Source: Acidobacteriota bacterium
GTDB lineage: Bacteria; Acidobacteriota; Terriglobia; UBA7540; JAPUME01
Assembly (NCBI GenBank): GCA_027294185.1
Contig: JAPUME010000062.1
Coordinates: forward strand, 1-10,345
Reading direction: 5' to 3'
DNA: 10,345 nucleotides
This document shows, in pieces, positions 123 through 10,345 of this stretch (its first letter is position 1; each line of letters starts with the position of its first letter). The notes under the pieces are model-generated. The model saw only the letters and a list, made by a program, of their open reading frames with translations. It made no database searches and had not been told where the DNA came from. The position numbers were made by a program, and so were the translations under genes.

Positions 123-1265
123 TCAGCCCGAAGATGGGGGAGAAGCCAGCTCGACCGCCGGGGCAGATGTAGGTTCATTCTTTTCAGCCACATACCGCTC
201 AATTTCTTTCACCAGTTCGGGCACGATATCGGCTTCCGAAACCCGCCGGACGACTTTCCCCTCGCGGTAGATGACGCCGTTGCCGCGCCCGCAAGCCACA
301 CCTAAATCAGCCTCGCGCGCCTCGCCGGGTCCGTTAACCGCGCAGCCCATCACGGCCAGCGATACCGGGTAGCGGATGTGCGCCGTCGCCTGCTCGATTT
401 CACCGGCGATCTTGAACAGGTCCACTTCCAGCCTTCCGCAGGTGGGACAGGCGATCACCACCGGGCCGCGGCTGCGCAACTCGAGCGCCTTCAGAATCTC
501 GTAGCCCACTCGCACTTCCTCCGCCGGGTCTGTGGCCAGCGAGACGCGAATCGTATCGCCGATGCCTTCCGCCAGCAGCATCCCCAATCCAATGGACGAC
601 TTGATCGTTCCCACATATTGCGTACCGGCTTCGGTGATGCCTAGGTGAAAGGGATAGTCGCACCTCGTCGCCAGCAGACGGTACGCCGCGACGGTCAGCT
701 TCACGTTCGAGGACTTGAGGGAAATAATGATGTCGCGGAAATCCAGCTCTTCCAGAATGCCGATGTGGTACTGGGCGCTCTCGGCCATCGCCTCCGGCGT
801 CGGGTAGCCGTATTTCTCAAGCAGCCGCCGCTCGAGCGACCCGGCATTGACGCCGATGCGAATCGGGACTTTGCATTCCTGCGCCTTTCGCACCACCTGG
901 CGGACCTTTTCCGCGTCGCCGATATTTCCGGGGTTGATGCGAAGCTTGTCGATGCCCGCATCGAGAACCATCAGGGCCAGTTTGTATTGAAAATGAATGT
1001 CGGCGACCAGAACGGCATCGGACCGTTTGCGAATCTCGACCAGAGCCCTGGCCGCTTCAACGTCCGGCACGGCGAGGCGGACGATTTCGCATCCCGCCTC
1101 CTCCATCTGCCGAATCTGCTCGAGTGTGGCCTCAACATCACGCGTGTCGGTTTTTGTCATCGACTGCACGGTGATGGCCGCATCTCCGCCCACCGTCAGT
1201 CGTCCGATCCGGACTTTGCGCGTCTTGCGGCGAGGGTTGAAATGTTCTGTGTCGCTAAAGTTCAA
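123..1265 (-). CDS. ispG: (E)-4-hydroxy-3-methylbut-2-enyl-diphosphate synthase IspG (GcpE)
   Basis: IspG converts MEcPP to HMBPP, the penultimate step of the MEP isoprenoid pathway, using a [4Fe-4S] cluster in the cytosol. The 380-residue product has the short two-domain bacterial form. The N-terminal TIM barrel carries [13 protein letters not shown] (31-43), [11 protein letters not shown] (106-116) and [11 protein letters not shown] (135-145). The C-terminal domain supplies the cluster ligands: CPTC (C273, C276), then GCAVNGPGE (C308, and E315 as the expected fourth ligand). The start is TTG at 1265: an in-frame TAG lies four codons upstream, no ATG precedes the conserved barrel, and AGGA sits about 8 nt before it. 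The last ~17 residues are a Pro/Ser/Ala-rich tail that probably has no catalytic role. It is the last gene of the uppS-cdsA-dxr-rseP-ispG run, 72 bp after rseP. Identification is firm; only the start is less certain. Confidence 0.97.
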
Positions 1266-1337
1266 AACGTTGTCCTATTACTCGAAGCCGGATCAAGCCT
1301 CCTCCGGCATGCTCACCGGAGTTCTCAACTCCGCCTT
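1266..1337 (-). other. rseP-ispG spacer with two potential hairpins
   Basis: This 72-bp spacer is the longest gap within the left cluster. Read on the minus strand it holds a 7-bp stem with a 3-nt loop (CGGAGTT/AACTCCG, 1317-1333). A 6-bp pair, GCCGGA and TCCGGC, follows. Neither is followed by a T-run, so neither looks like an intrinsic terminator. They could be mRNA processing or stabilising elements that uncouple ispG from rseP, but that is inference. The ispG ribosome binding site (AGGA) lies at the end of the spacer. Confidence 0.4.
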
Positions 1338-2663
1338 CTATCCCGGCGTGAAGATTTTTGCGATATCGTTGTACATCACAAAAACGGCAAACATGATCAG
1401 AACCATCATGCCTGCCATGGTGAATCGCTCCTTGAGTTTCATGCTCATGTCCCGCCGCATCAACGATTCGATGGCCAGGAAAAGGATCACTCCCCCATCG
1501 AGGACCGGAATCGGCAAAAGGTTGAGAATCCCCAGTTGCAGGCTGATAAACGCCATGATCTCTATCAGTTGCGGCAGGCCAGCTTCGTAAGCCCGGCCCG
1601 AAATCTGAGCGATTCCGATCGGACCGGACAACGCCCGCGCCGAGAGATTTCCCGTGATCAGTTTCCCGATGATTTGGAAGGTACGCACCGTGTTGCGGGA
1701 GAGATCCTCCACGGACCGCTCCCAAGCCTGAAGCCAGGGAAGCTGCTTAACCACAGTGTCATTTCGGAAGGTGACACCGATGCGCCACTTGGTCACTTCG
1801 CCCAATTCCGAATAGATCGGTTTAAGACGGGTCTCGATTTTCTCTCCCCCGCGCAGAACCGTCATTGCGACCTCAGCCCCTTCCAGCGTCTGGAGGAGCG
1901 GTGACAGGCACACCCAGCAGAATAATTCCCTGCCGTTTATGGCTACAATCTCGTCGCCCTGCTGCAATCCCGCAAGGCCGGCAGGCAACTCGGGATCGAT
2001 CAGGTCCAGTACGGCGGGCATGTAAGGAAACCAACCGACGCTCCCCACCTGATTCGGACCTTTCGCTTGCGGAGTAACGCTCACCCGGAAGGTCTCTTCG
2101 CCCCTCAGTATCGTCAGGGCGATCGGTTCATTCACAGTCGTCAGGACCTCAAACTGCAGTTCCTCCCAGGTGGGATTCGCAAGCTTCCCGGCCGCCACAA
2201 TACGGTCACCCGCCTTGATGCCTGCCTCCTCGGCAGGGGCCCCTTCGTCAACGTCTCCCACTCGCGCGGGTTGTTCCAGAAAGGCCGGTCTCTCATAGTG
2301 ATAATGGAAAAGTCCCGCCATAAGCGTGACCGCGAGAAAGCCGTTCATCAGGGGGCCCATGGCTACTACGATAAAGCGCTGCCAGCGCGGTTTTGAGTAG
2401 AAATCCGCCGGGTCGCCCGTATGCTCATCGGTGGGTTGCTCGCCGGCCATCTTGACGTAGCCACCCAGCGGCAGCATGGCGATGCGATAGTCGGTGCCCC
2501 CCTTCTTGAACCCGACCAGACGAGGGCCGAATCCCAGGGAAAAAGTCAGCACCCGGATGCCGAAAAACTTCGCGGCCAGGAAGTGCCCCAGCTCGTGAAT
2601 GAAAATCATCACGCCCAGCACGACAATGACCGAGCCGGCGTTGGTGAGAAATGCAGATAACAT
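1338..2663 (-). CDS. rseP: RIP metalloprotease RseP (site-2 protease, M50 family)
   Basis: RseP is an inner-membrane zinc protease that cuts transmembrane helices. In proteobacteria it releases sigma-E from its anti-sigma factor and clears signal-peptide remnants. The 441-residue product shows the zinc motif HELGH in the first membrane segment (H23, E24, H27). Further on are the FSLGFGPRL loop (41-49), GPLMN at the second core segment (103-107), and the third zinc ligand in NLLPIPVLDGG (D389). Between the core segments are two PDZ domains (about 130-200 and 213-285, each with a GDxIV strand), as in E. coli RseP. A final hydrophobic segment lies at about 415-431. The start is ATG at 2663, with GGAG 11 nt upstream overlapping the dxr stop codon. 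Its place after uppS-cdsA-dxr is a widely conserved order. The actual substrate here is unknown; no sigma or anti-sigma gene is in view. Confidence 0.97.
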   Translation of the reverse strand: MLSAFLTNAGSVIVVLGVMIFIHELGHFLAAKFFGIRVLTFSLGFGPRLVGFKKGGTDYRIAMLPLGGYVKMAGEQPTDEHTGDPADFYSKPRWQRFIVVAMGPLMNGFLAVTLMAGLFHYHYERPAFLEQPARVGDVDEGAPAEEAGIKAGDRIVAAGKLANPTWEELQFEVLTTVNEPIALTILRGEETFRVSVTPQAKGPNQVGSVGWFPYMPAVLDLIDPELPAGLAGLQQGDEIVAINGRELFCWVCLSPLLQTLEGAEVAMTVLRGGEKIETRLKPIYSELGEVTKWRIGVTFRNDTVVKQLPWLQAWERSVEDLSRNTVRTFQIIGKLITGNLSARALSGPIGIAQISGRAYEAGLPQLIEIMAFISLQLGILNLLPIPVLDGGVILFLAIESLMRRDMSMKLKERFTMAGMMVLIMFAVFVMYNDIAKIFTPG

Positions 2664-2674
2664 CCTGCTGGTTA

Positions 2675-2681
2675 CTCCTTA
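2675..2681 (-). promoter_or_regulatory. rseP ribosome binding site overlapping the dxr stop codon
   Basis: On the minus strand the dxr stop TAA is the first part of TAAGGAG, whose GGAG is the best ribosome binding site for rseP (spacing 11 nt). A ribosome finishing dxr would sit on the rseP start region, which suggests translational coupling. The geometry is seen in the sequence; the coupling is inferred. Confidence 0.6.
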
Positions 2682-3875
2682 GGTGAAATCGTTGAGGAGG
2701 CTTTCGCGGGCATAAGCCCTCGCCTCACGGTCACAATCCCAGACGTCCGCCAGCGATCTGAGCCGAGCCACTGAGGTCCGCCGCAGCACCCGCTGGATGA
2801 GGCGGGGAATATCGGTAAACTTGACCCGCCGCTTCAGGAAAGCCTCGACGGCAACCTCATCGGCAGCGTTCAAGGCGCAAGGCATCGACCCTCCCGACTC
2901 GAGCGCCTCTCGCGCCAGCCCCAGGCACGGAAACCGCCGCAGGTCGGGCAGCTCAAAATCGAGCCGCTTCATCTGCTCCCACGAGAGCAACTGCGAAGCC
3001 CCCTTCGCCGCCACCCCGTTTATGGATAAACGGTCGGGATAGTTCAGCGCGTAGCGGATGGGCAGCTTCATGTCCGCCACGCCCATCTGGGCGATCAGGG
3101 ACCCATCCTTAAATTCTACCATGGAGTGGACGATAGATTGCGGGTGGATCAGCACCTGAATGGCTTCCGAGGGCATACGAAAGAGCCAGTGGGCCTCGAT
3201 GACCTCGAATCCCTTGTTCATCAGCGTCGCCGAATCGAGAGTAATGCGGCCGCCCATCTTCCAGGTAGGATGCCGCAGCGCCTGTTCGGGTCTGATTCTT
3301 TCCAGCGCCCTGCGGGAAGTTTTCAGGAACGGCCCCCCCGAGGCGGTCAAAATGAGGTTTCGGACTTCCTCTCGCCGTCCGGCCCTTAAACATTGGTGGA
3401 TGGCGTTATGTTCGCTATCGACGGGAAGAATGTCGCTTTTCGTTTTCCGTGCCAGGCGGGTGATCAACTCCCCGGCTACTACCAGCGTTTCTTTGTTTGC
3501 CAGGGCCACGGACTTCCCCGACTCGACGGCCCGGTAGGTGGCTTCCAGTCCTGTGACTCCGTGCGAGGCCGAAACGACGGTATCGACCTGTGGATGCGTA
3601 GCCGCCTCCGACATTCCGCCGCTTCCGAAAACAATCTTCACACGCGGCCGATAGCCTTCCATCCGAAGCCTCTCCCGAAGACTCCGGGCCAGCTTTAGGT
3701 CCCGCACGGATACTATTTTGGGTTGAAGTTGATGGATTTGTCGATTGAGGACTCGAAGGTTTCCCCCGGCTGTGAGACCGATGACGCGAAAGCGGTCCGC
3801 CAGGGACTGGATCACTCGACAGGTGTTTCGGCCTACCGAGCCCGTGGAACCGAGAATACAAACGCCCTTTACCAT
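2679..3875 (-). CDS. dxr: 1-deoxy-D-xylulose 5-phosphate reductoisomerase Dxr (IspC)
   Basis: Dxr rearranges and reduces DXP to MEP with NADPH and a divalent metal, the first committed step of the MEP pathway and the target of fosmidomycin. The 398-residue protein opens with the NADPH loop LGSTGSVG (8-15). It then shows ALANKET (124-130), PVDSEHNAIHQ (151-161, metal ligands D153 and E155), LTASGGPF (176-183), HPTWKMG (202-208), ATLMNKGFEVIEA (216-228, third ligand E224), HPQSIVHSMVE (244-254) and NAADE (336-340). All catalytic motifs are intact. The segment usually written GxPDM reads GVADM (265-269), a Pro-to-Ala change. I chose ATG at 3875 because it places the NADPH motif at the usual distance from the N-terminus. 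An in-frame GTG at 3908 would add 11 residues with no family support. The start overlaps the cdsA stop by 7 bp (ATGGTAA), and rseP follows after 15 bp. Confidence 0.97.
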   Translation of the reverse strand: MVKGVCILGSTGSVGRNTCRVIQSLADRFRVIGLTAGGNLRVLNRQIHQLQPKIVSVRDLKLARSLRERLRMEGYRPRVKIVFGSGGMSEAATHPQVDTVVSASHGVTGLEATYRAVESGKSVALANKETLVVAGELITRLARKTKSDILPVDSEHNAIHQCLRAGRREEVRNLILTASGGPFLKTSRRALERIRPEQALRHPTWKMGGRITLDSATLMNKGFEVIEAHWLFRMPSEAIQVLIHPQSIVHSMVEFKDGSLIAQMGVADMKLPIRYALNYPDRLSINGVAAKGASQLLSWEQMKRLDFELPDLRRFPCLGLAREALESGGSMPCALNAADEVAVEAFLKRRVKFTDIPRLIQRVLRRTSVARLRSLADVWDCDREARAYARESLLNDFT

Positions 3876-4768
3876 CCCGCCAATCTCTCCACCACGCCGG
3901 CAAGCCACAGAACCGGCGCCGCCGTCAACAAGCTATCCAGCCGGTCAAGAAGACCCCCATGCCCGGGAAGAATCGTGGAGGAATCCTTCACGCCCGCCGA
4001 GCGCTTTAGGGCCGACTCCGCCAGGTCGCCCACTTGCCCGGCCACGGCCACCACCGCGGCCAGTATGAGAACTCCCGCCATCGACCGCGACTCCAAAATA
4101 AAGACGGCGAACAGCGCTCCCACCCCGAGGCTTCCCGCCAGCCCCCCAACGGCTCCCTCCACGGTTTTCTTGGGGCTTATCGCAGGGGCAAACCGGACCC
4201 GTCCCAATCCTCGGCCCACAAAGTAAGCGGCAACGTCCCCCACCCAGACCACGGCGAACAGGAAGAGGACCAGCATCCCGCCACTCTCGGGATCATCAAA
4301 GCGCAGCCTCGCCAGCCAGCTAAGCCCCAGACCGATAAAGATAACGCCGAAAAGCGTCGCTGCCACAGCGGGTAAGTATGCCTTTACATCCTGCCGGCCG
4401 CCGAGTGCCAACAGAGGGAACACCGTCACAAAGCCAACCAGCACCGGAACAAGGCCGAAACCGAGACCCATATCATTGACTTCAAGAATCTGTGCGACGG
4501 GGAGCACCAAGCCTCCCAGATATCCTAAGACGGGAAACGTTCCCAGCCCGGCATGCTCGACCATCCGGAAGTACTCGTACAGGCAAAGCTCAATGGTCAG
4601 CACCAATGCGGGCAGGAAAAGCCACAAGGGCGCGAACCCGGCCAGGTAAACGGTGGGAATCAGCAGAAGTATGGCTGTGAGGATGCGTTGATGAAGATTG
4701 GACCGCCGGGCGAAAGAATCCGGGGCCTTTTCCGCCGCCCGAGGCAGGCTCGATTCACCCGTCGTCAC
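3869..4768 (-). CDS. cdsA: Phosphatidate cytidylyltransferase CdsA
   Basis: CdsA is an integral membrane enzyme that makes CDP-diacylglycerol from phosphatidic acid and CTP, the branch point for bacterial phospholipids. The 299-residue product is rich in hydrophobic segments, starting after a ~25-residue polar N-terminus. It carries the family motif SPKKTVEG (198-205). Near the C-terminus is the CDS signature (252-278), with SALKR, VKDSS and LPGHGGLLDRLD containing the conserved Lys, Asp, His and Asp residues that bind metal and substrate. The start is GTG at 4768, overlapping the uppS stop as GTGA, and dxr begins inside the cdsA stop region. This uppS-cdsA-dxr order is common in bacteria and suggests coordinated synthesis of lipid carriers and membrane lipid. 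The length is typical of the family. The only doubt is the exact start. Confidence 0.96.
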   Translation of the reverse strand: MTTGESSLPRAAEKAPDSFARRSNLHQRILTAILLLIPTVYLAGFAPLWLFLPALVLTIELCLYEYFRMVEHAGLGTFPVLGYLGGLVLPVAQILEVNDMGLGFGLVPVLVGFVTVFPLLALGGRQDVKAYLPAVAATLFGVIFIGLGLSWLARLRFDDPESGGMLVLFLFAVVWVGDVAAYFVGRGLGRVRFAPAISPKKTVEGAVGGLAGSLGVGALFAVFILESRSMAGVLILAAVVAVAGQVGDLAESALKRSAGVKDSSTILPGHGGLLDRLDSLLTAAPVLWLAGVVERLAGW

Positions 4769-5532
4769 TGGCCCAGCCCCCCATAGCGCCGCTCCCGCTT
4801 CTGGAAGTCAACCACGGCTTGAAGCAAATCGAGCTGCGTGAAGTCGGGCCAATACTTGCTCGTCACCCAGATTTCAGAGTAGGCCACCTGCCAGAGCAGG
4901 AAGTTGCTCAAGCGCAGCTCGCCGCTGGTGCGAATCAGAAGGTCCGGGTCGGGAAGATCCCGCGTGTAGAGAGCCTGGCTGATCGTCTCCTCATCGATGC
5001 GCAACTGGCCGGTGCGGGAGCCGCGTTTGACCAGCTCCCTGGTCGCGTCCACAATTTCCGCCCGCGAGCCGTAATTGAGGGCCAGGGTCAGCCGCATCCC
5101 CTTGTTGTTCCGAGTCCGCTCGACGGCGCGCTCCAGGTCTTTCTGCACGGCTTTCGACAACTCACCGATGCGCCCGATACTCTCCAGGCGAATGTTGTTT
5201 TCGTTCAAATCATCCACGGCATCCTTCAGGTATTCCCGCAGCAACGACATGAGAAACCGTACCTCGGCGGGGGGCCGTTTCCAATTCTCGAGCGAGAAAG
5301 CATAGAGAGTGAGAAAAGATATACCCAGGCGGGTGCAGCCTTTCACCGCTTCCCGAACCGCTCCAATGCCCGCCCGGTGGCCCGCAAAGCGCGGCAGATG
5401 TTTCCCTTTGGCCCAGCGCCCGTTTCCGTCCATGATGATGGCGATGTGGGCGGGAAGGCGGTCGAGATCGATCGCCGCCAGCAGTTCGGCTTCTCGTTTT
5501 GAGCTTTTCTGAGATGATCGAACGGGGGTCAA
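4765..5532 (-). CDS. uppS: Isoprenyl transferase / undecaprenyl diphosphate synthase UppS (cis-prenyltransferase)
   Basis: UppS adds cis-isoprene units to farnesyl diphosphate to form undecaprenyl diphosphate, the lipid carrier for peptidoglycan and O-antigen. Diagnostic motifs are HIAIIMDGNGRWA with the catalytic Asp, GHRAG, LTLYAFSLENWKRP, LALNYGSRAEIVDA, and the C-terminal DPDLLIRTSGELRLSNFLLW followed by YSEIW. The cis-prenyltransferase regions are all present. I prefer TTG at 5532 (255 residues, the usual family length), because GGGAG lies about 9 nt upstream. A longer form from TTG at 5583 (272 residues) would add a basic, unconserved leader with a poor ribosome binding site. The stop overlaps the cdsA start. 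It is the first gene of the left cluster, 93 bp downstream of the NRAMP gene, so it could be co-transcribed with it or use its own promoter. Exact chain length cannot be read from sequence. Confidence 0.95.
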   Translation of the reverse strand: MTPVRSSQKSSKREAELLAAIDLDRLPAHIAIIMDGNGRWAKGKHLPRFAGHRAGIGAVREAVKGCTRLGISFLTLYAFSLENWKRPPAEVRFLMSLLREYLKDAVDDLNENNIRLESIGRIGELSKAVQKDLERAVERTRNNKGMRLTLALNYGSRAEIVDATRELVKRGSRTGQLRIDEETISQALYTRDLPDPDLLIRTSGELRLSNFLLWQVAYSEIWVTSKYWPDFTQLDLLQAVVDFQKRERRYGGLGQ

Positions 5533-5554
5533 ACGCTTCTTCTCCCGAGAATCA

Positions 5555-5583
5555 AAGTTAGCACACCGACCTATCCCCCGCAA
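5555..5583 (-). promoter_or_regulatory. Possible sigma70-type promoter for the uppS cluster
   Basis: In the gap between the NRAMP gene and uppS the minus strand reads TTGCGG (5583-5578), a 17-bp spacer, then TAACTT (5560-5555). Only the strongest -35 bases (TTG) and three of six -10 bases match consensus, so this is weak. If real, transcription would begin just before the GGGAG ribosome binding site, which fits the uppS start at 5532 and not the one at 5583. Confidence 0.22.
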
Positions 5584-5625
5584 GCGAGTGCGGTCCCGCA
5601 GCTTTCCGCCGTGGAAACACGGGTC

Positions 5626-6888
5626 TCAACCGATGGTGGCTTCCGGGAAAACTCCACTCAGGGCAAGCGTCAGGGTGAGAACCACCATCACGACAACCGT
5701 CATCCAGGCGACGACATTGAGGGCCGGGTGATTCCGGTATTTACCCATCAGGTCTTTACGACTGCTGAGGCGAACGATGAAAATCAGCACCACCGGCAGC
5801 AGAAAACCGTTGACCACCTGCGAGAGTAGAATCACGGGAATCAGAGGGATGCCGGGGATCAGAACGATGCCGGCTCCTCCAAAAACCAGCACGGTATAGA
5901 GCCAGTAAAAGACCGGCGCTTCGTGGAACTTGCGGTTGACTCCGGCCTCCAAACCCAGTCCCTCGCAGACGTAGTAGGCCGTTGCCAGAGGAAGAACCGA
6001 GGCGGCCAGAAGAGATGCGTTACACAGCCCGACCGCGAAGAGGGTGGAGGCCCAGCGCCCCGCCAGCGGCTCCAAGGCCAGCGCAGCCTGCGCGGCATCT
6101 TTGATTTCGTGCTGGCCCGATTGATGGAGGGTGACGGCACAGCCGACGACGATGAAAAATACCAGCGCAGCCGAAAATACGCCGCCCAGGATTACATCCC
6201 AGCGCGCCTGTCGAATATGTTGGACTTTGATTCCCTTTTCGACCACTGAGGACTGCTGGTAGAACTGCATCCAGGGCGCGATGACGGCCCCGGCCATACC
6301 GATGACCATCATCAAATAAGCGGGTTCATAATGGATGCGAGGAGTCACGGTGCTGGTGAGCGCCTCGGACCAGTCCGGCCCGGCCAGAAACGCCGAGGCA
6401 AAGTAGGCCAAATAGAAAAGGCAGGCCACCAGGAAAACCTTTTCCACCGACCGGTAGGTTCCCTTGACCACCAACCCCCAGACCAGCAGGGCTCCCAGAG
6501 GCACACTCAGGTATCGGCTGGCGCCGAATATCTCAAGACTCGTAGCCACCCCGGCGAATTCGGCGACGATGTTGCTTAAATTCGCCGCCACCAGCGCCAG
6601 CATCAGGAGGAAGGTGGCGCGAAATCCGTACTCCTCGCGAATCAGGTCGGCCAGGCCTTTCCCGGTCACCACACCCATCCGCGCGCACATCTCCTGGATT
6701 ACGATCAGCGCCACCAGGATGGGAATGAGCGTCCAGAGCAGATCGAATCCGTAACGCGCCCCCGCCGCGGAGGCGATGTAGATGCCCCCGGCGTCGTTAT
6801 CTACCGTGGCCGTAATCAGACCCGGGCCTACGACGGCCAGGAAAACGACCATGGTTTTGCGGTACCGTTTGAGCCGCCTCCAGATCAC
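5626..6888 (-). CDS. NRAMP-family divalent metal transporter, NRMT-like (probable Mg2+)
   Basis: This is a 420-residue polytopic membrane protein with about eleven hydrophobic segments and the NRAMP/SLC11 fold (LeuT-like). Helix 1 holds GPGLITATVDNDAGG (21-35) and helix 6 holds GMAGAVIAPWMQFY (197-210). These align with the family motifs DPGN and MPHN, but the metal-site Asn becomes A33, the Met becomes A204 and the His becomes W206; D30 is kept. Classical Mn/Fe NRAMPs need the Asn and Met. Their loss is the pattern I associate with the NRAMP-related Mg2+ transporters characterised in Clostridium and Eggerthella. Mg2+ (or hydrated Mg2+/Mn2+) is therefore more likely than Fe. The start is GTG at 6888 with a strong GGGGAG 5 nt upstream. 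It lies 27 bp after a gene encoding a soluble MgtE-type Mg2+ sensor, which supports the substrate guess. Family assignment is firm; substrate is inferred. Confidence 0.9.
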   Translation of the reverse strand: MIWRRLKRYRKTMVVFLAVVGPGLITATVDNDAGGIYIASAAGARYGFDLLWTLIPILVALIVIQEMCARMGVVTGKGLADLIREEYGFRATFLLMLALVAANLSNIVAEFAGVATSLEIFGASRYLSVPLGALLVWGLVVKGTYRSVEKVFLVACLFYLAYFASAFLAGPDWSEALTSTVTPRIHYEPAYLMMVIGMAGAVIAPWMQFYQQSSVVEKGIKVQHIRQARWDVILGGVFSAALVFFIVVGCAVTLHQSGQHEIKDAAQAALALEPLAGRWASTLFAVGLCNASLLAASVLPLATAYYVCEGLGLEAGVNRKFHEAPVFYWLYTVLVFGGAGIVLIPGIPLIPVILLSQVVNGFLLPVVLIFIVRLSSRKDLMGKYRNHPALNVVAWMTVVVMVVLTLTLALSGVFPEATIG

Positions 6889-6915
6889 CCCATCTCCCCC
6901 CGTCGATTTCGCCCT

Positions 6916-8157
6916 TTAACGCTCTCGGACTACCAAGTCTATAACGTCATCCGAGGTCACTTCACCGATCAATTTTCCCTGTTCATCAACGACCGGCAAG
7001 GAAACCAGATTGTATTTTTGGAAAAGTTCGATCACATGATCGTGCGGTTGCTCGGCGGCAGTGGAAATCAGCGGCTCCTCAAACAGCTCGCGCAGGGGCT
7101 TCGATGCCGGGCTCGCGACCACCTGAGCCAGGGGAATCGCTCCCACCAGTTTTTCATCAGCGTCGATCAAATAGAGCACATGCAGGCTTTCGAGCGACCC
7201 CTCGAACGCGCCGACCGCGGTCACTGCATCCTCGGCGGTGGCGTTTTCGGGCAGGGCGATGAAGTCGGTGGTCATCAACGCTCCGGCCACGTCTTCCTCG
7301 AACTGCAAGAGCTCCTGAACGTCCTCGGCTTCTTCGGGTTCCATGCCGGCCAGAAGCTCCGTGCTGGTTTCCGGCGGCAACTCCTGCAGCAGGTCGGCGG
7401 CCTCGTCGGGCGGCATCTCTTCGATCAGATCGGCTGCCTTGTGAGGTTCCATCCCCTTGACGATGCTCGCCTGCATCGAAGTGGGTATTTCGGAAAGCGC
7501 CTCGGCTGCGGTCTCCTCATCGATGGAGGTAAGGACGGCCGTCTGGTCCTGCGCGCTCAGGTGCTCCAGAATGTCCCCCAAATCCGCCGGATGCATACGC
7601 GCCAGCCGGTCGTAGGAAATCCTCAGCTTCAGGCGGCGAGAGGGATCGGCCTCAATCAGGTTTACGAAATCCCAGGGGATGACCTGCTGGGGAAGGAAAT
7701 TTTCCACGCGGCGGATCAGGTGCTTCGAGAGCAATCCCTTCAGCAGCCGGCGGGCGGCGGCCGCCAATCCCACGTTGACCGCGACGACCAGTAGCTGCGT
7801 ATGTCCGTCAACGGGTTGAATATCGAAATCCACATCATTGACGCGCACCACCTTTCGGTCCGTCACGTCGATGATCTGCTGATCCAGCAAATCCTTCTTG
7901 ACGCGAATCCAGTCCTCGTTCGGCGTGTAGGCGGGGATTTCTGCGACGGGAGTGTTGGTGTGGATCGACTGGACCGATAGCGACTGGATTTGAACATACG
8001 GGATCGAGACCAGCCGGCCGTCAATGCTGCGGGCAATGTAGAGGGAAACGCGGTGGCGAACGTCTTCGGGATCGATGCAGATCTCCACCACCTTGCCGAC
8101 GTATTCGCCGAAAGCGTCGAAAACCGGCACTCCCTCGATTTCGGTAAAGTAGATCAT
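6916..8157 (-). CDS. Soluble PRC-barrel / MgtE_N / tandem CBS domain protein (Mg2+ sensor without channel)
   Basis: This 413-residue protein has no membrane segment. It begins with two PRC-barrel-like units (about 5-62 and 88-128, the second with RKVVRVNDVDFDI). A linker follows (130-183), then an MgtE_N superhelical domain (about 184-285) with acidic repeats such as DLIEEMPPDEAADLLQELP. A CBS pair completes it (about 291-350 and 358-410, opening with AGALMTTDFI and closing with TSDDVIDLVV). In MgtE the same MgtE_N-CBS unit binds Mg2+ and closes the channel. Here the protein ends where MgtE would enter its plug helix and transmembrane domain, so it cannot be a channel itself. A gene for an NRAMP-type transporter follows after 27 bp. 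I infer that it senses Mg2+ (or nucleotide through CBS) and regulates that transporter. The start is ATG at 8157 behind GAGGGAAAAGGGA. Database labels of 'magnesium transporter' would be misleading. Confidence 0.9.
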   Translation of the reverse strand: MIYFTEIEGVPVFDAFGEYVGKVVEICIDPEDVRHRVSLYIARSIDGRLVSIPYVQIQSLSVQSIHTNTPVAEIPAYTPNEDWIRVKKDLLDQQIIDVTDRKVVRVNDVDFDIQPVDGHTQLLVVAVNVGLAAAARRLLKGLLSKHLIRRVENFLPQQVIPWDFVNLIEADPSRRLKLRISYDRLARMHPADLGDILEHLSAQDQTAVLTSIDEETAAEALSEIPTSMQASIVKGMEPHKAADLIEEMPPDEAADLLQELPPETSTELLAGMEPEEAEDVQELLQFEEDVAGALMTTDFIALPENATAEDAVTAVGAFEGSLESLHVLYLIDADEKLVGAIPLAQVVASPASKPLRELFEEPLISTAAEQPHDHVIELFQKYNLVSLPVVDEQGKLIGEVTSDDVIDLVVRER

Positions 8158-8293
8158 TCCCTTTTCCCTCTTTGCGGATTTTTCAGGACGGCAGCCCGGA
8201 TTGCGGAGAATCGGCGTTAAACCGGAACCCGAGCCTCACCCTCTGAAGAGCGAAACCGGCGATCCGATGAAGGGCCCTACCTCTATTCGCTGG

Positions 8294-8321
8294 ACGTGGC
8301 AGGCGGAGACGCCTGCAACGT
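8294..8321. repeat. Near-perfect palindrome with a GAGA loop (REP-like)
   Basis: A 7-bp perfect stem GCAGGCG/CGCCTGC (8299-8305 with 8310-8316) encloses the loop GAGA. After one G.A mismatch it extends by four more pairs (ACGT with ACGT, 8294-8297 and 8318-8321). Read on the plus strand the loop is a GNRA-type tetraloop. There is no T-run on either side, so it is a poor terminator. The compact GC-rich form resembles dispersed REP-type palindromes; whether it recurs in this genome cannot be seen here. Confidence 0.6.
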
Positions 8322-8342
8322 AAGGAAGTGATTTTGAGTACC

Positions 8343-8377
8343 AAAAGCCCGCCTTCAAACTGCGGACAAACGGGCTT
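8343..8377 (-). terminator. Putative intrinsic terminator downstream of tatA
   Basis: On the minus strand AAGCCCG (8377-8371) pairs with CGGGCTT (8351-8345), and the 3' arm runs into TTTT. The stem is 7 bp with a rather long 19-nt loop, and the T-run is short and partly inside the stem, so termination may be inefficient. It lies about 80 bp after the tatA stop and is a natural boundary between the tatA unit and the metal-transport unit. Confidence 0.45.
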
Positions 8378-8458
8378 ACTGATGCGGGGCCGTTAAGAGA
8401 GGAGATAACAGGAAACTTGCTCTTTCAACCCACTTTACAACCGAGGAAGGCAGGCGCG

Positions 8459-8680
8459 CTAGGCTTGTTTCTTTTCTTCCGTCTTTACTTCTGCCTTCTT
8501 TTCATCTTCCGCCTCGGATGCATCGGAGGAGGACACCACTCCTCTCATCGCGTCTTTGAATTCGCGAATACCTTTACCCAGTCCTTTACCCAACTCCGGG
8601 AGTTTCCCCGGGCCGAAAAGGATCAAAACAATCACCAGGATAAAGAAGATGTGCGACGGCTGAAACAAACCCTCTAGCAT
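8459..8680 (-). CDS. tatA: Sec-independent (twin-arginine) translocase subunit TatA
   Basis: TatA oligomerises in the inner membrane to form the passage through which the Tat system exports folded proteins. The 73-residue product has the standard layout. A short N-terminus and one hydrophobic helix (about 10-24) lead into the hinge LFGPGKLPELG (21-31), followed by an amphipathic helix GKGLGKGIREFKDAM (31-45). The tail is charged and rich in Glu/Lys/Ala (50-73). The short tail and FGPGKLPELG hinge favour TatA/TatE over TatB. The start is ATG at 8680 with a strong GGGGGAGG ending 9 nt upstream. No tatC or tatB is in the window, so the partners lie elsewhere. It follows the CYTH gene by 95 bp, with a candidate promoter in the gap, and is followed by a possible terminator, so it may be its own transcription unit. 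Confidence 0.95.
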   Translation of the reverse strand: MLEGLFQPSHIFFILVIVLILFGPGKLPELGKGLGKGIREFKDAMRGVVSSSDASEAEDEKKAEVKTEEKKQA

Positions 8681-8742
8681 ATTGGCGAACCTCCCCCTTG
8701 CCGGTTAGGAGCCGTCAAGGGCATCATGGGAATCCAAGCTTC

Positions 8743-8748
8743 ATTATA
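8743..8748 (-). promoter_or_regulatory. Candidate -10 element for tatA
   Basis: The minus strand reads an exact TATAAT in the 95-bp gap upstream of tatA, about 60 bp before its ATG. No good -35 hexamer is found at 16-19 bp spacing (the region is CT-rich), so support rests on the -10 match and its position in a gap in otherwise GC-rich DNA. Confidence 0.35.
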
Positions 8749-8775
8749 ACGCAGAACTCTGTGTGGAAGGGAGAA

Positions 8776-9372
8776 TTACCGCCCCTTAAATACCTTGCGA
8801 CCCGCTTTTCCGCCCTGGCGTCGGAAATGGCGGGAATAGAGAGTCGGATAGGTCTCGGTAAGGTAATCTTCGCGGGAAAAGCCCAGTCTTCGTGCGGTTC
8901 GATCAATCCAGAGAGGCGAGCCTTCAAGTTCAAGAAAGGTTCCAACAGGGGTCTCATCCAGGGCGATCACCCCCGAGCTGCGTCGGCGCTTTCTTACCTG
9001 GGAGGCATAGAGCGTCCTGTATTTCTCGTAGCGCAATACAGACATAAGTCCTGCCATTTCAAGGATTTGTCTTAGACTTCGCCCCTCTTTGGTCTCCACT
9101 TCGATTTCGCGGCGAACCTTGTGGGGCCTCAAGCCTAAGGGTCTTCCTTTGAATGTAAGCAGGCAGCTCCCAGCCGTGAACCGTAGGCGCAAAACGCATC
9201 CCTTTTTCCTGAGCCGCCCATCAACAAAGTCGAAAAGCTCGTTCCTCTCCAAATGCCGACGGCGTATGACCCTGAAATCCAGCTTCCTCAGCAGACGCCG
9301 GGCCGGGCCGGGTCCCTGCATGGGCAATTTGATCTCGGTTTCCAGGGGATGGGACTTCTTTCCGGTGGACAA
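8776..9372 (-). CDS. CYTH domain protein (class IV adenylate cyclase / triphosphatase fold)
   Basis: This is a 198-residue protein of the CYTH (CyaB-thiamine triphosphatase) tunnel fold, which binds triphosphate groups with two metals. The signature ExExK is present as ETEIK (E11, E13, K15). The expected basic and acidic tunnel residues follow: RLR (62-64), LTFKG (K75), REIEVE (E89, E91), YEKYR (K117, R119), ALDE (D139) and FLELEG (E148, E150). The active site therefore looks complete. The fold includes cAMP-making cyclases, thiamine triphosphatases and inorganic triphosphatases, and sequence alone does not separate them. The start is TTG at 9372: an in-frame stop lies nine codons upstream, and the first ATG would remove ETEIK. 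The C-terminus is strongly basic (after about 180). It starts 28 bp after the polyprenyl synthase stop, so the two are probably co-transcribed. Whether they are functionally linked is unknown. Confidence 0.85.
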   Translation of the reverse strand: MSTGKKSHPLETEIKLPMQGPGPARRLLRKLDFRVIRRRHLERNELFDFVDGRLRKKGCVLRLRFTAGSCLLTFKGRPLGLRPHKVRREIEVETKEGRSLRQILEMAGLMSVLRYEKYRTLYASQVRKRRRSSGVIALDETPVGTFLELEGSPLWIDRTARRLGFSREDYLTETYPTLYSRHFRRQGGKAGRKVFKGR

Positions 9373-9400
9373 AGCGTACCGTTGCCTAAAGGTTCTTTAC

Positions 9401-10345
9401 TTAGGCTTCCCGCTCCAGAATGTAATCGGGGAGAGAAAGGAGGGCTTGCTTGTAAACGGAATCCGGGAAGGAGTCAAGGCTCGCCTTGGCGCGCTCGGCA
9501 TAACCGCGCGCTCTTTCGCGGGTGGCATCCAGAGTGCCGTAATGGGCCACCAAATCCTGAATCTCGCTCAACGGGACATTTTCAAATCCGCCGTCCCGGA
9601 GCACCTGGGAGACGCGACGGGCCTCTTCAGGCCGGCAAGATTCAAGAAGCAGAATCATCGGCAGCGTCAGTTTCCCCTCGCGCAGATCATTGCCGACCGG
9701 TTTTCCCAGCTTCTCGGGCGAGGAAGAAAAATCCAGCAGGTCGTCGATCATCTGGAAAGCCAAACCCAGATGCGTGCCGTAATCTCCCATCCGCTCCTCG
9801 GTGGTCGAATTGCACCCGGCCAGCACAGCTCCCAGCCGCATGGAACTCGAAAACAGGCACGCCGTCTTTCGGTAGATCAGGTCCAGATGCTGTTCTTCTG
9901 TGACCTTCTCATCCCGGATAAGGGTTAGCTGCTTCATTTCTCCTTCTACCATGCTCTGGGTCAGGTTGATCAGCAGATCGAGGACTTTGAAGTTTCGCTC
10001 CCCCAGCGCAATCCGAAACGACTGCATGTATAGCCAGTCGCCGGCCAGCACGCTCATCGAATTCCCCCAGCGCAAGTTGGTGGAGGGCCGCCCCCGCCGC
10101 AGGTCGGCTCCGTCAATGATGTCATCGTGAACCAGCGTGGCCGTATGAATCAACTCCACTACGGCTGCAAGCTGGTGGACCGAAGAACCCTGGTAGCCAC
10201 AGAGCTTCGCAGCCAGCAAGAGCACCGCCGGGCGCACCCGCTTGCCGCCGCTCGCTCTCAAATAGTTGCCGATTTCGGTTATGGGCTTGACCGAGGAGAC
10301 ACTCTGCTGCTCGAAGATCTTCTCAACCTGAACGAGATCCTTTCG
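9401..10345 (-). CDS. Long-chain all-trans polyprenyl diphosphate synthase (5' end outside window)
   Basis: This enzyme condenses isopentenyl diphosphate onto allylic diphosphates, most likely to make the side chain of respiratory quinones. Visible motifs are GGKRVRPAVLLL, the first Asp-rich motif in TATLVHDDIIDGADLRRGRP, GNSMSVLAGDWLYMQSF, and the second Asp-rich motif in FQMIDDLLDF. Small residues (Ala, Thr) at positions -5 and -4 before the first DDxxD fit a long-chain enzyme of the IspB/heptaprenyl/solanesyl type and not farnesyl or geranylgeranyl synthase. The frame remains open to 10345, with a typical N-terminal stretch (EKIFEQQSV, EIGNYL), so the true start lies beyond the window; the TTG at 10261 is internal. 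314 codons plus the stop are seen, close to full length. Its substrates come from the MEP pathway, of which dxr and ispG lie at the other end of the window. The exact chain length is not determinable. Confidence 0.94.
   Translation of the reverse strand, partial: RKDLVQVEKIFEQQSVSSVKPITEIGNYLRASGGKRVRPAVLLLAAKLCGYQGSSVHQLAAVVELIHTATLVHDDIIDGADLRRGRPSTNLRWGNSMSVLAGDWLYMQSFRIALGERNFKVLDLLINLTQSMVEGEMKQLTLIRDEKVTEEQHLDLIYRKTACLFSSSMRLGAVLAGCNSTTEERMGDYGTHLGLAFQMIDDLLDFSSSPEKLGKPVGNDLREGKLTLPMILLLESCRPEEARRVSQVLRDGGFENVPLSEIQDLVAHYGTLDATRERARGYAERAKASLDSFPDSVYKQALLSLPDYILEREA

What the first reader, a model, noticed from the sequence alone, without database searches (positions are those of the whole stretch)
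5626..8157. Split Mg2+ module: MgtE-type sensor protein without a channel, paired with an NRAMP-type transporter
The first gene encodes PRC-barrel + MgtE_N + CBS-CBS and stops exactly where MgtE would enter its membrane domain. The next gene, 27 bp downstream with a strong ribosome binding site, encodes an NRAMP-fold transporter with Mg2+-type motif changes. In MgtE the MgtE_N-CBS unit gates an unrelated five-helix channel. Here it appears to have been moved onto a LeuT-fold carrier as a separate subunit, which would be an unusual way to gate an NRAMP. Seen directly: domain content, absence of membrane segments and gene spacing. Inferred: physical interaction and Mg2+ gating.
Basis: partly seen in the sequence, partly recalled or inferred. 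Interest (0 to 1): 0.7.

Follow-up and report, generated by a model that had tools for sequence, protein, structure and literature searches.

The report
NRAMP magnesium carrier with detached sensor
Two neighbouring genes encode a metal carrier of the NRAMP-related magnesium type and a loose copy of the sensor half of the MgtE magnesium channel; the pairing was first reported in 2014, recurs widely here, and most likely lets the cell throttle metal uptake, but the sensor's job has not been shown.

Summary
On the minus strand, 6916-8157 encodes a soluble PRC + MgtE_N + CBS-CBS protein (413 aa). 27 bp downstream, 5626-6888 encodes an NRAMP-fold protein closest to the solved magnesium carrier EleNRMT.

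The idea is not new. Shin et al. 2014 (PMC4072509) reported that most NrmT genes have a neighbour homologous to the MgtE cytoplasmic domain and proposed feedback regulation. The one pair they tested (Acidobacterium capsulatum) behaved as a manganese importer, and adding the fragment did not improve magnesium rescue.

My survey strengthens the link. 68 of 75 related loci carry the carrier just downstream; five misses are contig ends and two are full MgtE channels. In 149 genomes of the phylum, all 31 with this carrier type have an MgtE_N protein and 3 have an MgtE channel. The pair also occurs in reverse order and on plasmids, four times behind an M-box magnesium riboswitch.

The window's sensor keeps the Mg4, Mg6 and Mg7 magnesium residues of MgtE but lost one Mg5 residue and the ATP pocket. 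30 of 73 sensors read in one related family lost Mg4; a genome that may be A. capsulatum is among them.

Physical contact, gating and substrate remain unproven. Co-folding gave pTM 0.71-0.72, only suggestive.

The parts
6916..8157 (-). Stand-alone sensor gene, 413 aa: PRC + MgtE_N + CBS-CBS, no membrane domain
7990..8157 (-). PRC-barrel domain (residues 1-56)
   Evidence: Pfam PF05239, 47.3 bits
7780..7893 (-). Possible second PRC-like segment (residues 89-126); below cut-off in the window
   Evidence: PF05239 14.8 bits against cut-off 21.2, E 0.029; in relative L139 the PRC match falls on residues 86-148 at 35.6 bits, over cut-off; folded as strands in the model
7291..7596 (-). MgtE_N domain (residues 188-289) with E219, D251 and D255, which match MgtE Mg7, Mg4 and Mg6 residues E59, D91 and D95
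   Evidence: residue numbers of the MgtE sites from PMC5882242 passages
7108..7284 (-). First CBS domain (approximate bounds, from the ungapped match to T. thermophilus MgtE)
   Evidence: alignment; two CBS stretches
6931..7089 (-). Second CBS domain (residues 357-409); D404 matches Mg4 residue D247; Mg5 residue D226 is N383, D250 is D407
6889..6915 (-). 27-bp gap with G-rich ribosome-binding-site-like stretch; the two genes are in the same frame
5626..6888 (-). NRAMP-fold carrier of the NRMT type, 420 aa, GTG start
   Evidence: Pfam 338 bits; 375 bits to EleNRMT 7qia, next best 97 bits
6778..6807 (-). Helix-1 metal-site motif TVDNDAGGIY (DxxG in place of DPGN)
6256..6291 (-). Helix-6 metal-site motif GAVIAPWMQFYQ (Ala204 in place of Met; Ala201 where NRMTs usually have Thr)
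8158..8458 (-). Upstream non-coding stretch between tatA and the sensor; no M-box or other Rfam match up to E 1, no sigma-70-like promoter match

Best explanation
This is a two-gene divalent-metal uptake module. The 5626-6888 protein is an NRAMP-related carrier of the NRMT type, which by analogy with EleNRMT takes up Mg2+ (and Mn2+) without proton coupling. The 6916-8157 protein is the soluble sensor half of a PRC-type MgtE without its channel. It most likely sits on the cytoplasmic face of the carrier and, when cytosolic Mg2+ is high, binds Mg2+ between its MgtE_N and CBS domains and damps uptake, as the same domains do for the MgtE channel. Shown here: domain content, tight genetic linkage in both gene orders, rarity of the MgtE channel where this carrier type is found, and retention of the Mg4, Mg6 and Mg7 residues in this sensor. 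Inferred: physical contact, damping of transport, and Mg2+ as the main substrate and signal.
For: 68 of 75 loci with a related sensor have the NRMT downstream on the same strand, and 44 of these 68 have a possible start codon overlapping the sensor stop by 4 bases; five misses are contig ends and two are full MgtE proteins with the channel domain. Phylum sample: 31 of 31 genomes with this NRMT type have MgtE_N (92 of 118 others), 3 of 31 have the MgtE channel (83 of 118 others). One family, 80 genomes: both genes in 76, sensor only in 2, NRMT only in 0, neither in 2. Ten plasmid records that cover at least 80% of the sensor all carry an NRAMP within about 0.5 kb, in either order. M-box magnesium riboswitches lie upstream of the pair in L179, L181, L182 and L184 and of a sensor at a contig end in L012 (5 of the 18 loci). 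Window residues D251, D404, D255 and E219 match MgtE Mg4, Mg6 and Mg7; in 82 of 93 stand-alone group A sensors D91, D95 and D247 are all acidic. EleNRMT transport is not proton-coupled (PMC8806188 passages), so a shut-off like that of MgtE would make sense. Co-folds of two pairs gave pTM 0.71 and 0.72.
Against: Shin et al. found that the A. capsulatum pair mainly imports Mn2+, that adding the fragment did not improve Mg2+ rescue, and that the C. acetobutylicum carriers work without their fragment. In the 149-genome sample the pair is adjacent in 15 of 31 genomes, 0.7-5.6 kb apart in 8, and far apart or on other contigs in 8. No M-box in the window, in the 18 loci or in the 18 loci. The window's helix-6 motif has Ala where 100 of 102 group A carriers have Thr. 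A binding-site swap of NRMT type did not give Mg2+ transport in EcoDMT (PMC8806188). The sensor lost one Mg5 residue, and group B sensors lack D91 altogether. The co-fold pTM is intermediate; I could see neither inter-protein error nor coordinates, and no control fold was run.
Confidence: 0.58

Rival explanations
1. The carrier is mainly a Mn2+ (or broad transition-metal) importer and the sensor reads Mn2+ or another signal instead of Mg2+.
For: Shin et al. concluded this for the A. capsulatum pair. EleNRMT also carries Mn2+. The window lacks an M-box. Two plasmid pairs lie beside an ArsR-type regulator and a heavy-metal P-type ATPase.
Against: The window sensor keeps the Mg4 pair, whereas G181, a genome that may be A. 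capsulatum, and in all 30 of 73 sensors read from that family lost it. The window genome, 75% complete, shows no MgtE channel or CorA, so it needs some Mg2+ importer; MgtA-type pumps were not searched. M-boxes precede the pair in other lineages.
Confidence: 0.22
2. The sensor is a metal buffer or chaperone, or acts on another target such as a protease, and does not gate the carrier.
For: Shin et al. named a chaperone role as an alternative. The genes are not adjacent in 16 of the 31 sampled genomes and in 41 of 76 of one family.
Against: Co-occurrence with NRMT is near complete even where the genes are apart (76 both, 2 sensor only, 0 NRMT only of 80). The domains are those that gate MgtE.
Confidence: 0.12
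3. The sensor works in trans on an ordinary MgtE channel encoded elsewhere, and the NRMT neighbour is coincidental.
For: A full-length PRC-MgtE_N-CBS-channel protein exists (L060), so the two halves are compatible.
Against: 28 of 31 NRMT genomes have no MgtE channel match; in the 80-genome family 8 have a match, 7 over cut-off.
Confidence: 0.03
4. Neighbouring genes without functional link.
For: Other genes of envelope and isoprenoid functions lie in the same strand run.
Against: Linkage in records named Nitrospirota, Acidobacteriota, Bacillota, Actinomycetota and Pseudomonadota, in both gene orders and on plasmids.
Confidence: 0.02

Closest known systems
NrmT plus MgtE-like fragment (Shin et al. 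2014, PMC4072509)
   Same: NRAMP-related carrier with a neighbouring gene homologous to the MgtE cytoplasmic domain; A. capsulatum has the same order, fragment then carrier.
   Different: No M-box here (A. capsulatum lacks one too). A PRC domain is not mentioned in that paper's main text (term search). The window sensor keeps the Mg4 residues, unlike the sensor of a genome that may be A. capsulatum.
EleNRMT (PDB 7qia, 7qji; PMC8806188)
   Different: First helix-6 site residue is Ala201 in the window; EleNRMT has Thr in the alignment. Whether EleNRMT has a sensor partner was not determined here.
MgtE Mg2+ channel (TIGR00400; PDB 2yvx)
   Same: MgtE_N and CBS pair, including Mg4, Mg6 and Mg7 residues.
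   Different: No channel domain, N-terminal PRC-barrel added, ATP-pocket residues not kept, one of the two Mg5 residues lost.
Classical NRAMP/MntH (DraNramp, ScaDMT)
   Different: The window lacks the DPGN/MPH metal-site residues.

Membership tests
NrmT with MgtE-like fragment (Shin et al. 2014) | NRAMP-related carrier outside the MntH groups, nearer to NRMT | tested here: met
   375 bits to EleNRMT against 97 to the best MntH; no named NrmT reference was put in my tree
NrmT with MgtE-like fragment (Shin et al. 2014) | Neighbour gene homologous to the MgtE N-terminal cytoplasmic domain | tested here: met
NrmT with MgtE-like fragment (Shin et al. 2014) | M-box riboswitch upstream (present in a subset only) | tested here: not met
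   No Rfam match up to E 1 in the window; not a required feature, A. capsulatum also lacks it
NrmT with MgtE-like fragment (Shin et al. 2014) | Mg2+ transport | not testable with these tools
   Needs a transport assay
NRMT clade (Ramanadane et al. 2022) | Helix 1 DxxG in place of DxxN | tested here: met
   D32-A-G-G35
NRMT clade (Ramanadane et al. 2022) | Helix 6 Met replaced by Ala or Thr | tested here: met
   Ala204
NRMT clade (Ramanadane et al. 2022) | Helix 6 Thr at the first motif position (consensus TxxA/T) | tested here: not met
   Ala201 in the window; 100 of 102 group A sequences have Thr, the window and one other have Ala. I treat this as a residue variant and call the protein NRMT-like.
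MgtE channel | MgtE channel domain PF01769 and full-length TIGR00400 match | tested here: not met
   No PF01769 in the protein or the 75% complete genome; 151.6 bits against cut-off 232.75
[quoted passage not shown]
   D251/D404, D255, E219
MgtE-type Mg2+ sensor domain | Mg5 pair D226/D250 | tested here: not met
   N383/D407; N at D226 in 84 of 93 stand-alone sensors, Asp in 8 of 11 full-length proteins
MgtE-type Mg2+ sensor domain | Mg2 and Mg3 sites | not tested
   The search for their residues failed on a malformed word and was not repeated
MgtE-type Mg2+ sensor domain | ATP pocket Y170, R187, D188, N203, F227 | tested here: not met
   V327, A344, Q345, E360, L384

The most novel reading that the evidence does not exclude
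A LeuT-fold metal carrier is gated in trans by a detached MgtE-type Mg2+ sensor: the channel half of PRC-type MgtE was replaced by a proton-uncoupled NRAMP relative, the sensor accompanies both main branches of these carriers in my tree, in either gene order, and in one Acidobacteriota family the Mg4 site was often lost. If the tested A. capsulatum sensor belongs to that Mg4-less group, this would explain why the only experimental test of the sensor saw no effect.
Probability: 0.42. Interest if true: 0.66.

Novelty: new member of a known kind. Interest (0 to 1): 0.4.

Why it matters
A fourth class of bacterial Mg2+ importers (NrmT) was named in 2014, and the role of its accompanying MgtE-like fragment was left open there. 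The comparison here makes the question testable: it names which residues of the sensor should bind Mg2+, shows that many sensors in the family of the tested species have lost one of those sites, and points to loci (M-box-controlled pairs of Alicyclobacillus, Arthrobacter, Leifsonia and Mycolicibacterium, and the window's own pair) that may be better test cases. If gating is shown, a sensor domain would be seen working on two unrelated transport folds.

Tried and rejected
Trans-acting on an MgtE channel: rejected, most genomes with this carrier type have no channel match.

Natural fusions as proof of contact: a search with the read-through pair gave 193 proteins from 7991 scored candidates; of the best 120 listed, two carry both NRAMP and MgtE_N domains. 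P0002 (605 aa) and P0003 (544 aa) both start inside MgtE_N, and P0003 has garbled stretches that look like indel errors. Each is a single sequence. With a 4-base overlap in many pairs, one indel can fuse the frames, so I do not use them as evidence. A long open frame over the NRAMP of L158 (1115 aa) lies in another frame than the sensor and is not a fusion.

Group B (NRAMP first, sensor second) was picked by me because an MgtE_N lay next to the NRAMP, so its 10 of 10 adjacency is by construction; only the order, domain content and tree position are results. The Fisher test that joins A and B (p 1e-26) is circular for B and is not used.

Tree of 86 NRAMPs (midpoint-rooted): group A on one side, and on the other group B with most plasmid pairs and four carriers without an adjacent MgtE_N (L159, L160, L164, L166); the two sides join with support 0.97, group A itself (with one plasmid carrier, L179) has 0.76. 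A single origin of the pairing with later rearrangement is as possible as several origins. Before the tree I kept about one in four Nitrospirota rows and left out L110-L138 and L150-L157; no named reference sequence was in it.

Mg4 loss against adjacency in the f2 family (25 of 43 adjacent with Mg4, 7 of 30 without, Fisher p 0.004) is not corrected for descent, and 5 of 78 sensors were not read.

The identity of G181 with A. capsulatum is a guess from genome size (4.1 Mb, one contig; the size of A. capsulatum is recalled) and gene order. Family f2 proteins are named Edaphobacter and Acidobacteriaceae by sources, the family of A. capsulatum in NCBI taxonomy, but the species itself was not among the names in the 120 rows listed.

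Second PRC domain: below cut-off in the window, though a relative matches there. sigma-70 promoter scan: nothing. A control co-fold of NRAMP with the next gene (UppS) was prepared but its alignment was wrong, so it was not run; the expected no-contact pTM of about 0.55-0.62 is my own estimate. A first alignment for the co-fold (A1) misplaced the ends of most sensor rows and was replaced by A2. The VIA-align rows lie almost wholly on the carrier half of the model.
Full report
What is there. The two genes lie on the minus strand: the sensor at 6916-8157 (413 aa) and, 27 bp downstream and in the same frame, the carrier at 5626-6888 (420 aa, GTG start). Pfam finds PRC, MgtE_N and CBS in the first and Nramp in the second, all over cut-off. 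The NCBI mgtE model matches the sensor over its positions 26-254 of 450, below its cut-off. The sensor has no predicted hydrophobic segment; by the same crude measure 38 of 110 stand-alone relatives score one such segment, which I take to be buried structure. The carrier's best solved relative is EleNRMT at 375 bits; the next is DraNramp at 97 bits. Upstream lies tatA with 301 bp of non-coding DNA between, without any Rfam match up to E 1 or promoter match.

The link has been published. Shin et al. 2014 (PMC4072509; I read the phylogeny section and the Discussion in full, and passages) found that most NrmT genes have a neighbour homologous to the MgtE N-terminal cytoplasmic domain, many behind M-box riboswitches, and speculated that it gives cytoplasmic feedback or acts as a chaperone. 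Their A. capsulatum NrmT, which lies downstream of such a gene, rescued a manganese importer mutant fully and a magnesium importer mutant only at low millimolar Mg2+; adding the fragment did not improve the magnesium rescue. Ramanadane et al. 2022 (PMC8806188; passages) solved EleNRMT, which carries Mg2+ and Mn2+ without protons. I found no later work on the fragment in the library searched. Searches; others (PRC-barrel, MgtE, magnesium; NRMT, CBS domain) gave no paper. Of the eight papers, the six besides these two were checked by term search (PMC9606685; PMC10115441, PMC10606218, PMC12873925, PMC10185341, PMC11742427): none mentions MgtE. A 2026 review (PMC13209247) does not name NrmT, and a 2026 preprint (PMC13060092) mentions MgtE only as an assay source and in a reference. 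Most other listed papers were not opened, and the library lacks most subscription journals.

How strong is the linkage? One scan with the sensor returned 75 loci, mostly Nitrospirota. In 68 of 75 an NRMT follows on the same strand, and in 44 of these 68 a possible start codon overlaps the sensor stop by four bases. Of the seven others, five are cut by a contig end (L012, L040, L062, L065, L071). L060 is a 607-aa PRC-MgtE_N-CBS-MgtE channel protein and L077 a 466-aa MgtE with the channel domain.

In 149 genomes of the window's phylum, 31 have an NRMT of at least 45% identity (group A). The phylum is Acidobacteriota: the sensor of G036, a genome of the same class, is named so by its sources. All 31 have MgtE_N (92 of 118 others) and 3 have the MgtE channel (83 of 118 others; Fisher p 7e-10, not corrected for descent). 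The three with a channel have a second MgtE_N match. From the coordinates I count the pair adjacent in 15, 0.7-5.6 kb apart on the same strand in 8, and far apart or on other contigs in 8. MgtE_N without any channel match occurs in 38 genomes; 28 have group A, 8 have group B, 2 have neither (G012, G080).

Group B is ten genomes in which an NRAMP of 32-36% identity is followed, not preceded, by a sensor protein. I chose these because MgtE_N was adjacent. All ten sensors have PRC, MgtE_N and CBS over cut-off. In PLSDB, 92 records match the sensor and 10 cover at least 80% of it; all 10 have an NRAMP within about 0.5 kb on the same strand. Alicyclobacillus, Mycolicibacterium and Streptomyces clavuligerus (three records) have sensor first; Arthrobacter, Leifsonia, Cellulomonas, Citrobacter and Serratia have NRAMP first. 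Seven regions were opened (the S. clavuligerus record carries no annotation there); the positions in S. clavuligerus and the other three records were read from the tables. M-box riboswitches lie upstream in L012, L179, L181, L182 and L184, that is 5 of the 18 loci; in L012 the contig ends before a carrier could be seen, and in L184 a small annotated ORF lies between M-box and sensor. There were 0 of 18 and 0 of 18. Many loci hold little upstream DNA.

Carrier motifs. In 102 group A proteins the helix-1 motif has Gly at its fourth position in all 102 (DNDA(S/G)G in 78), and helix 6 reads GTTI(T/A)PW in 87, with Thr first in 100; group B has both motifs in 10 of 10; of 21 other NRAMPs 5 have DPGN with MPH and none has the helix-1 motif DNDA(S/G)G. 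The published NRMT signature is DxxG-TxxA/T. The window reads DxxG-AxxA. Binding-site residues alone did not give Mg2+ transport in EcoDMT, so the motif does not settle the substrate.

Sensor sites. MgtE site residues come from passages of PMC5882242 (Mg4 D91/D247, Mg5 D226/D250, Mg6 D95, Mg7 E59) and PMC5529423 (ATP pocket). The window has D251/D404, D255 and E219 for Mg4, Mg6 and Mg7, but N383 for D226 and none of the five checked ATP side chains. Among 93 stand-alone group A sensors, 82 keep D91, D95 and D247 as acids and 84 have Asn at D226; among 11 proteins with membrane segments, 8 keep the three and 8 keep both Mg5 acids; of 10 group B sensors none keeps the three, D91 being replaced in all; of 7 plasmid sensors 6 keep the three. 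All 11 group A exceptions come from family f2.

Family f2 in more depth (80 genomes, at least 95% complete): sensor in 78, NRMT in 76, both in 76, sensor only in 2, NRMT only in 0, neither in 2; channel matches in 8, 7 over cut-off. Of the 78 sensors, 35 are adjacent to an NRMT, 18 within 7 kb upstream of it, 23 apart, 2 without NRMT. Of 73 sensors read, 30 lost the Mg4 pair. Sources name f2 proteins Edaphobacter and Acidobacteriaceae, which is the family of A. capsulatum. G181, one contig of 4.1 Mb with the pair 117 bp apart by match coordinates, has Ser and His at the Mg4 positions. It may be A. capsulatum (size recalled, not confirmed). If so, the one sensor tested so far lacks a site that the window's sensor keeps.

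Mechanism. An uncoupled carrier driven by membrane potential would keep filling the cell, as an open channel would. MgtE solves this by closing when Mg2+ binds its cytoplasmic domains (abstracts of PMC8104411 and PMC5882242 as listed). The same sensor, made as a separate subunit, is the simplest reading of the pair. The earlier test looked for better rescue at low Mg2+, which a damping subunit is not expected to give, so that null result does not count strongly against gating.

Verdict. The idea is good but was published in 2014, and the proof of gating is still missing. The parts I did not see in the papers checked are the size and breadth of the linkage, the reversed order, the rarity of the MgtE channel beside it, and the site pattern.

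Noticed in passing
L060:3983-5806: A full-length PRC-MgtE_N-CBS-CBS-MgtE channel protein (607 aa) in a Nitrospirae MAG: a possible type of ancestor of the stand-alone sensors.
   Followed up: partly
Family f2 genomes, e.g. L112, L118, L119, L121, L124, L126-L128, L130, L135, L194: Sensors in one Acidobacteriota family lost the Mg4 pair (D91 mostly to Gly or Ser, D247 mostly to Gln or His) in 30 of 73 read, often with the genes no longer adjacent.
   Followed up: partly
L139-L148: A second NRAMP group has the sensor gene after the carrier instead of before it, and all ten of these sensors lack D91 of the Mg4 pair.
   Followed up: partly
L139:1916-3115: The Pfam PRC match falls on residues 86-148, the place of the weak second PRC-like segment in the window's sensor, so these sensors may carry two PRC-barrels.
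   Followed up: partly
L182, L184: On Leifsonia and Mycolicibacterium plasmids a MgtC/SapB family gene lies next to or near the sensor and NRAMP pair, behind an M-box.
   Followed up: no
L180, L183: On the Citrobacter and Cellulomonas plasmids the pair lies beside an ArsR-type regulator and a heavy-metal P-type ATPase, which hints at a different metal setting for some pairs.
   Followed up: no
window 123-10345, minus strand: The pair sits between ispG-rseP-dxr-cdsA-uppS and tatA-CYTH-polyprenyl synthase, all on one strand (gene names given by me from the Pfam hits).
   Followed up: no
G000 (whole assembly): No MgtE channel and no CorA match in the 75% complete genome, so this carrier may be its main Mg2+ importer; MgtA-type pumps were not searched.
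   Followed up: partly
L159, L160, L164, L166: NRMT-like carriers with DNDAGA or ENDGPS helix-1 motifs and no MgtE_N next to them, grouped in the tree with group B.
   Followed up: no
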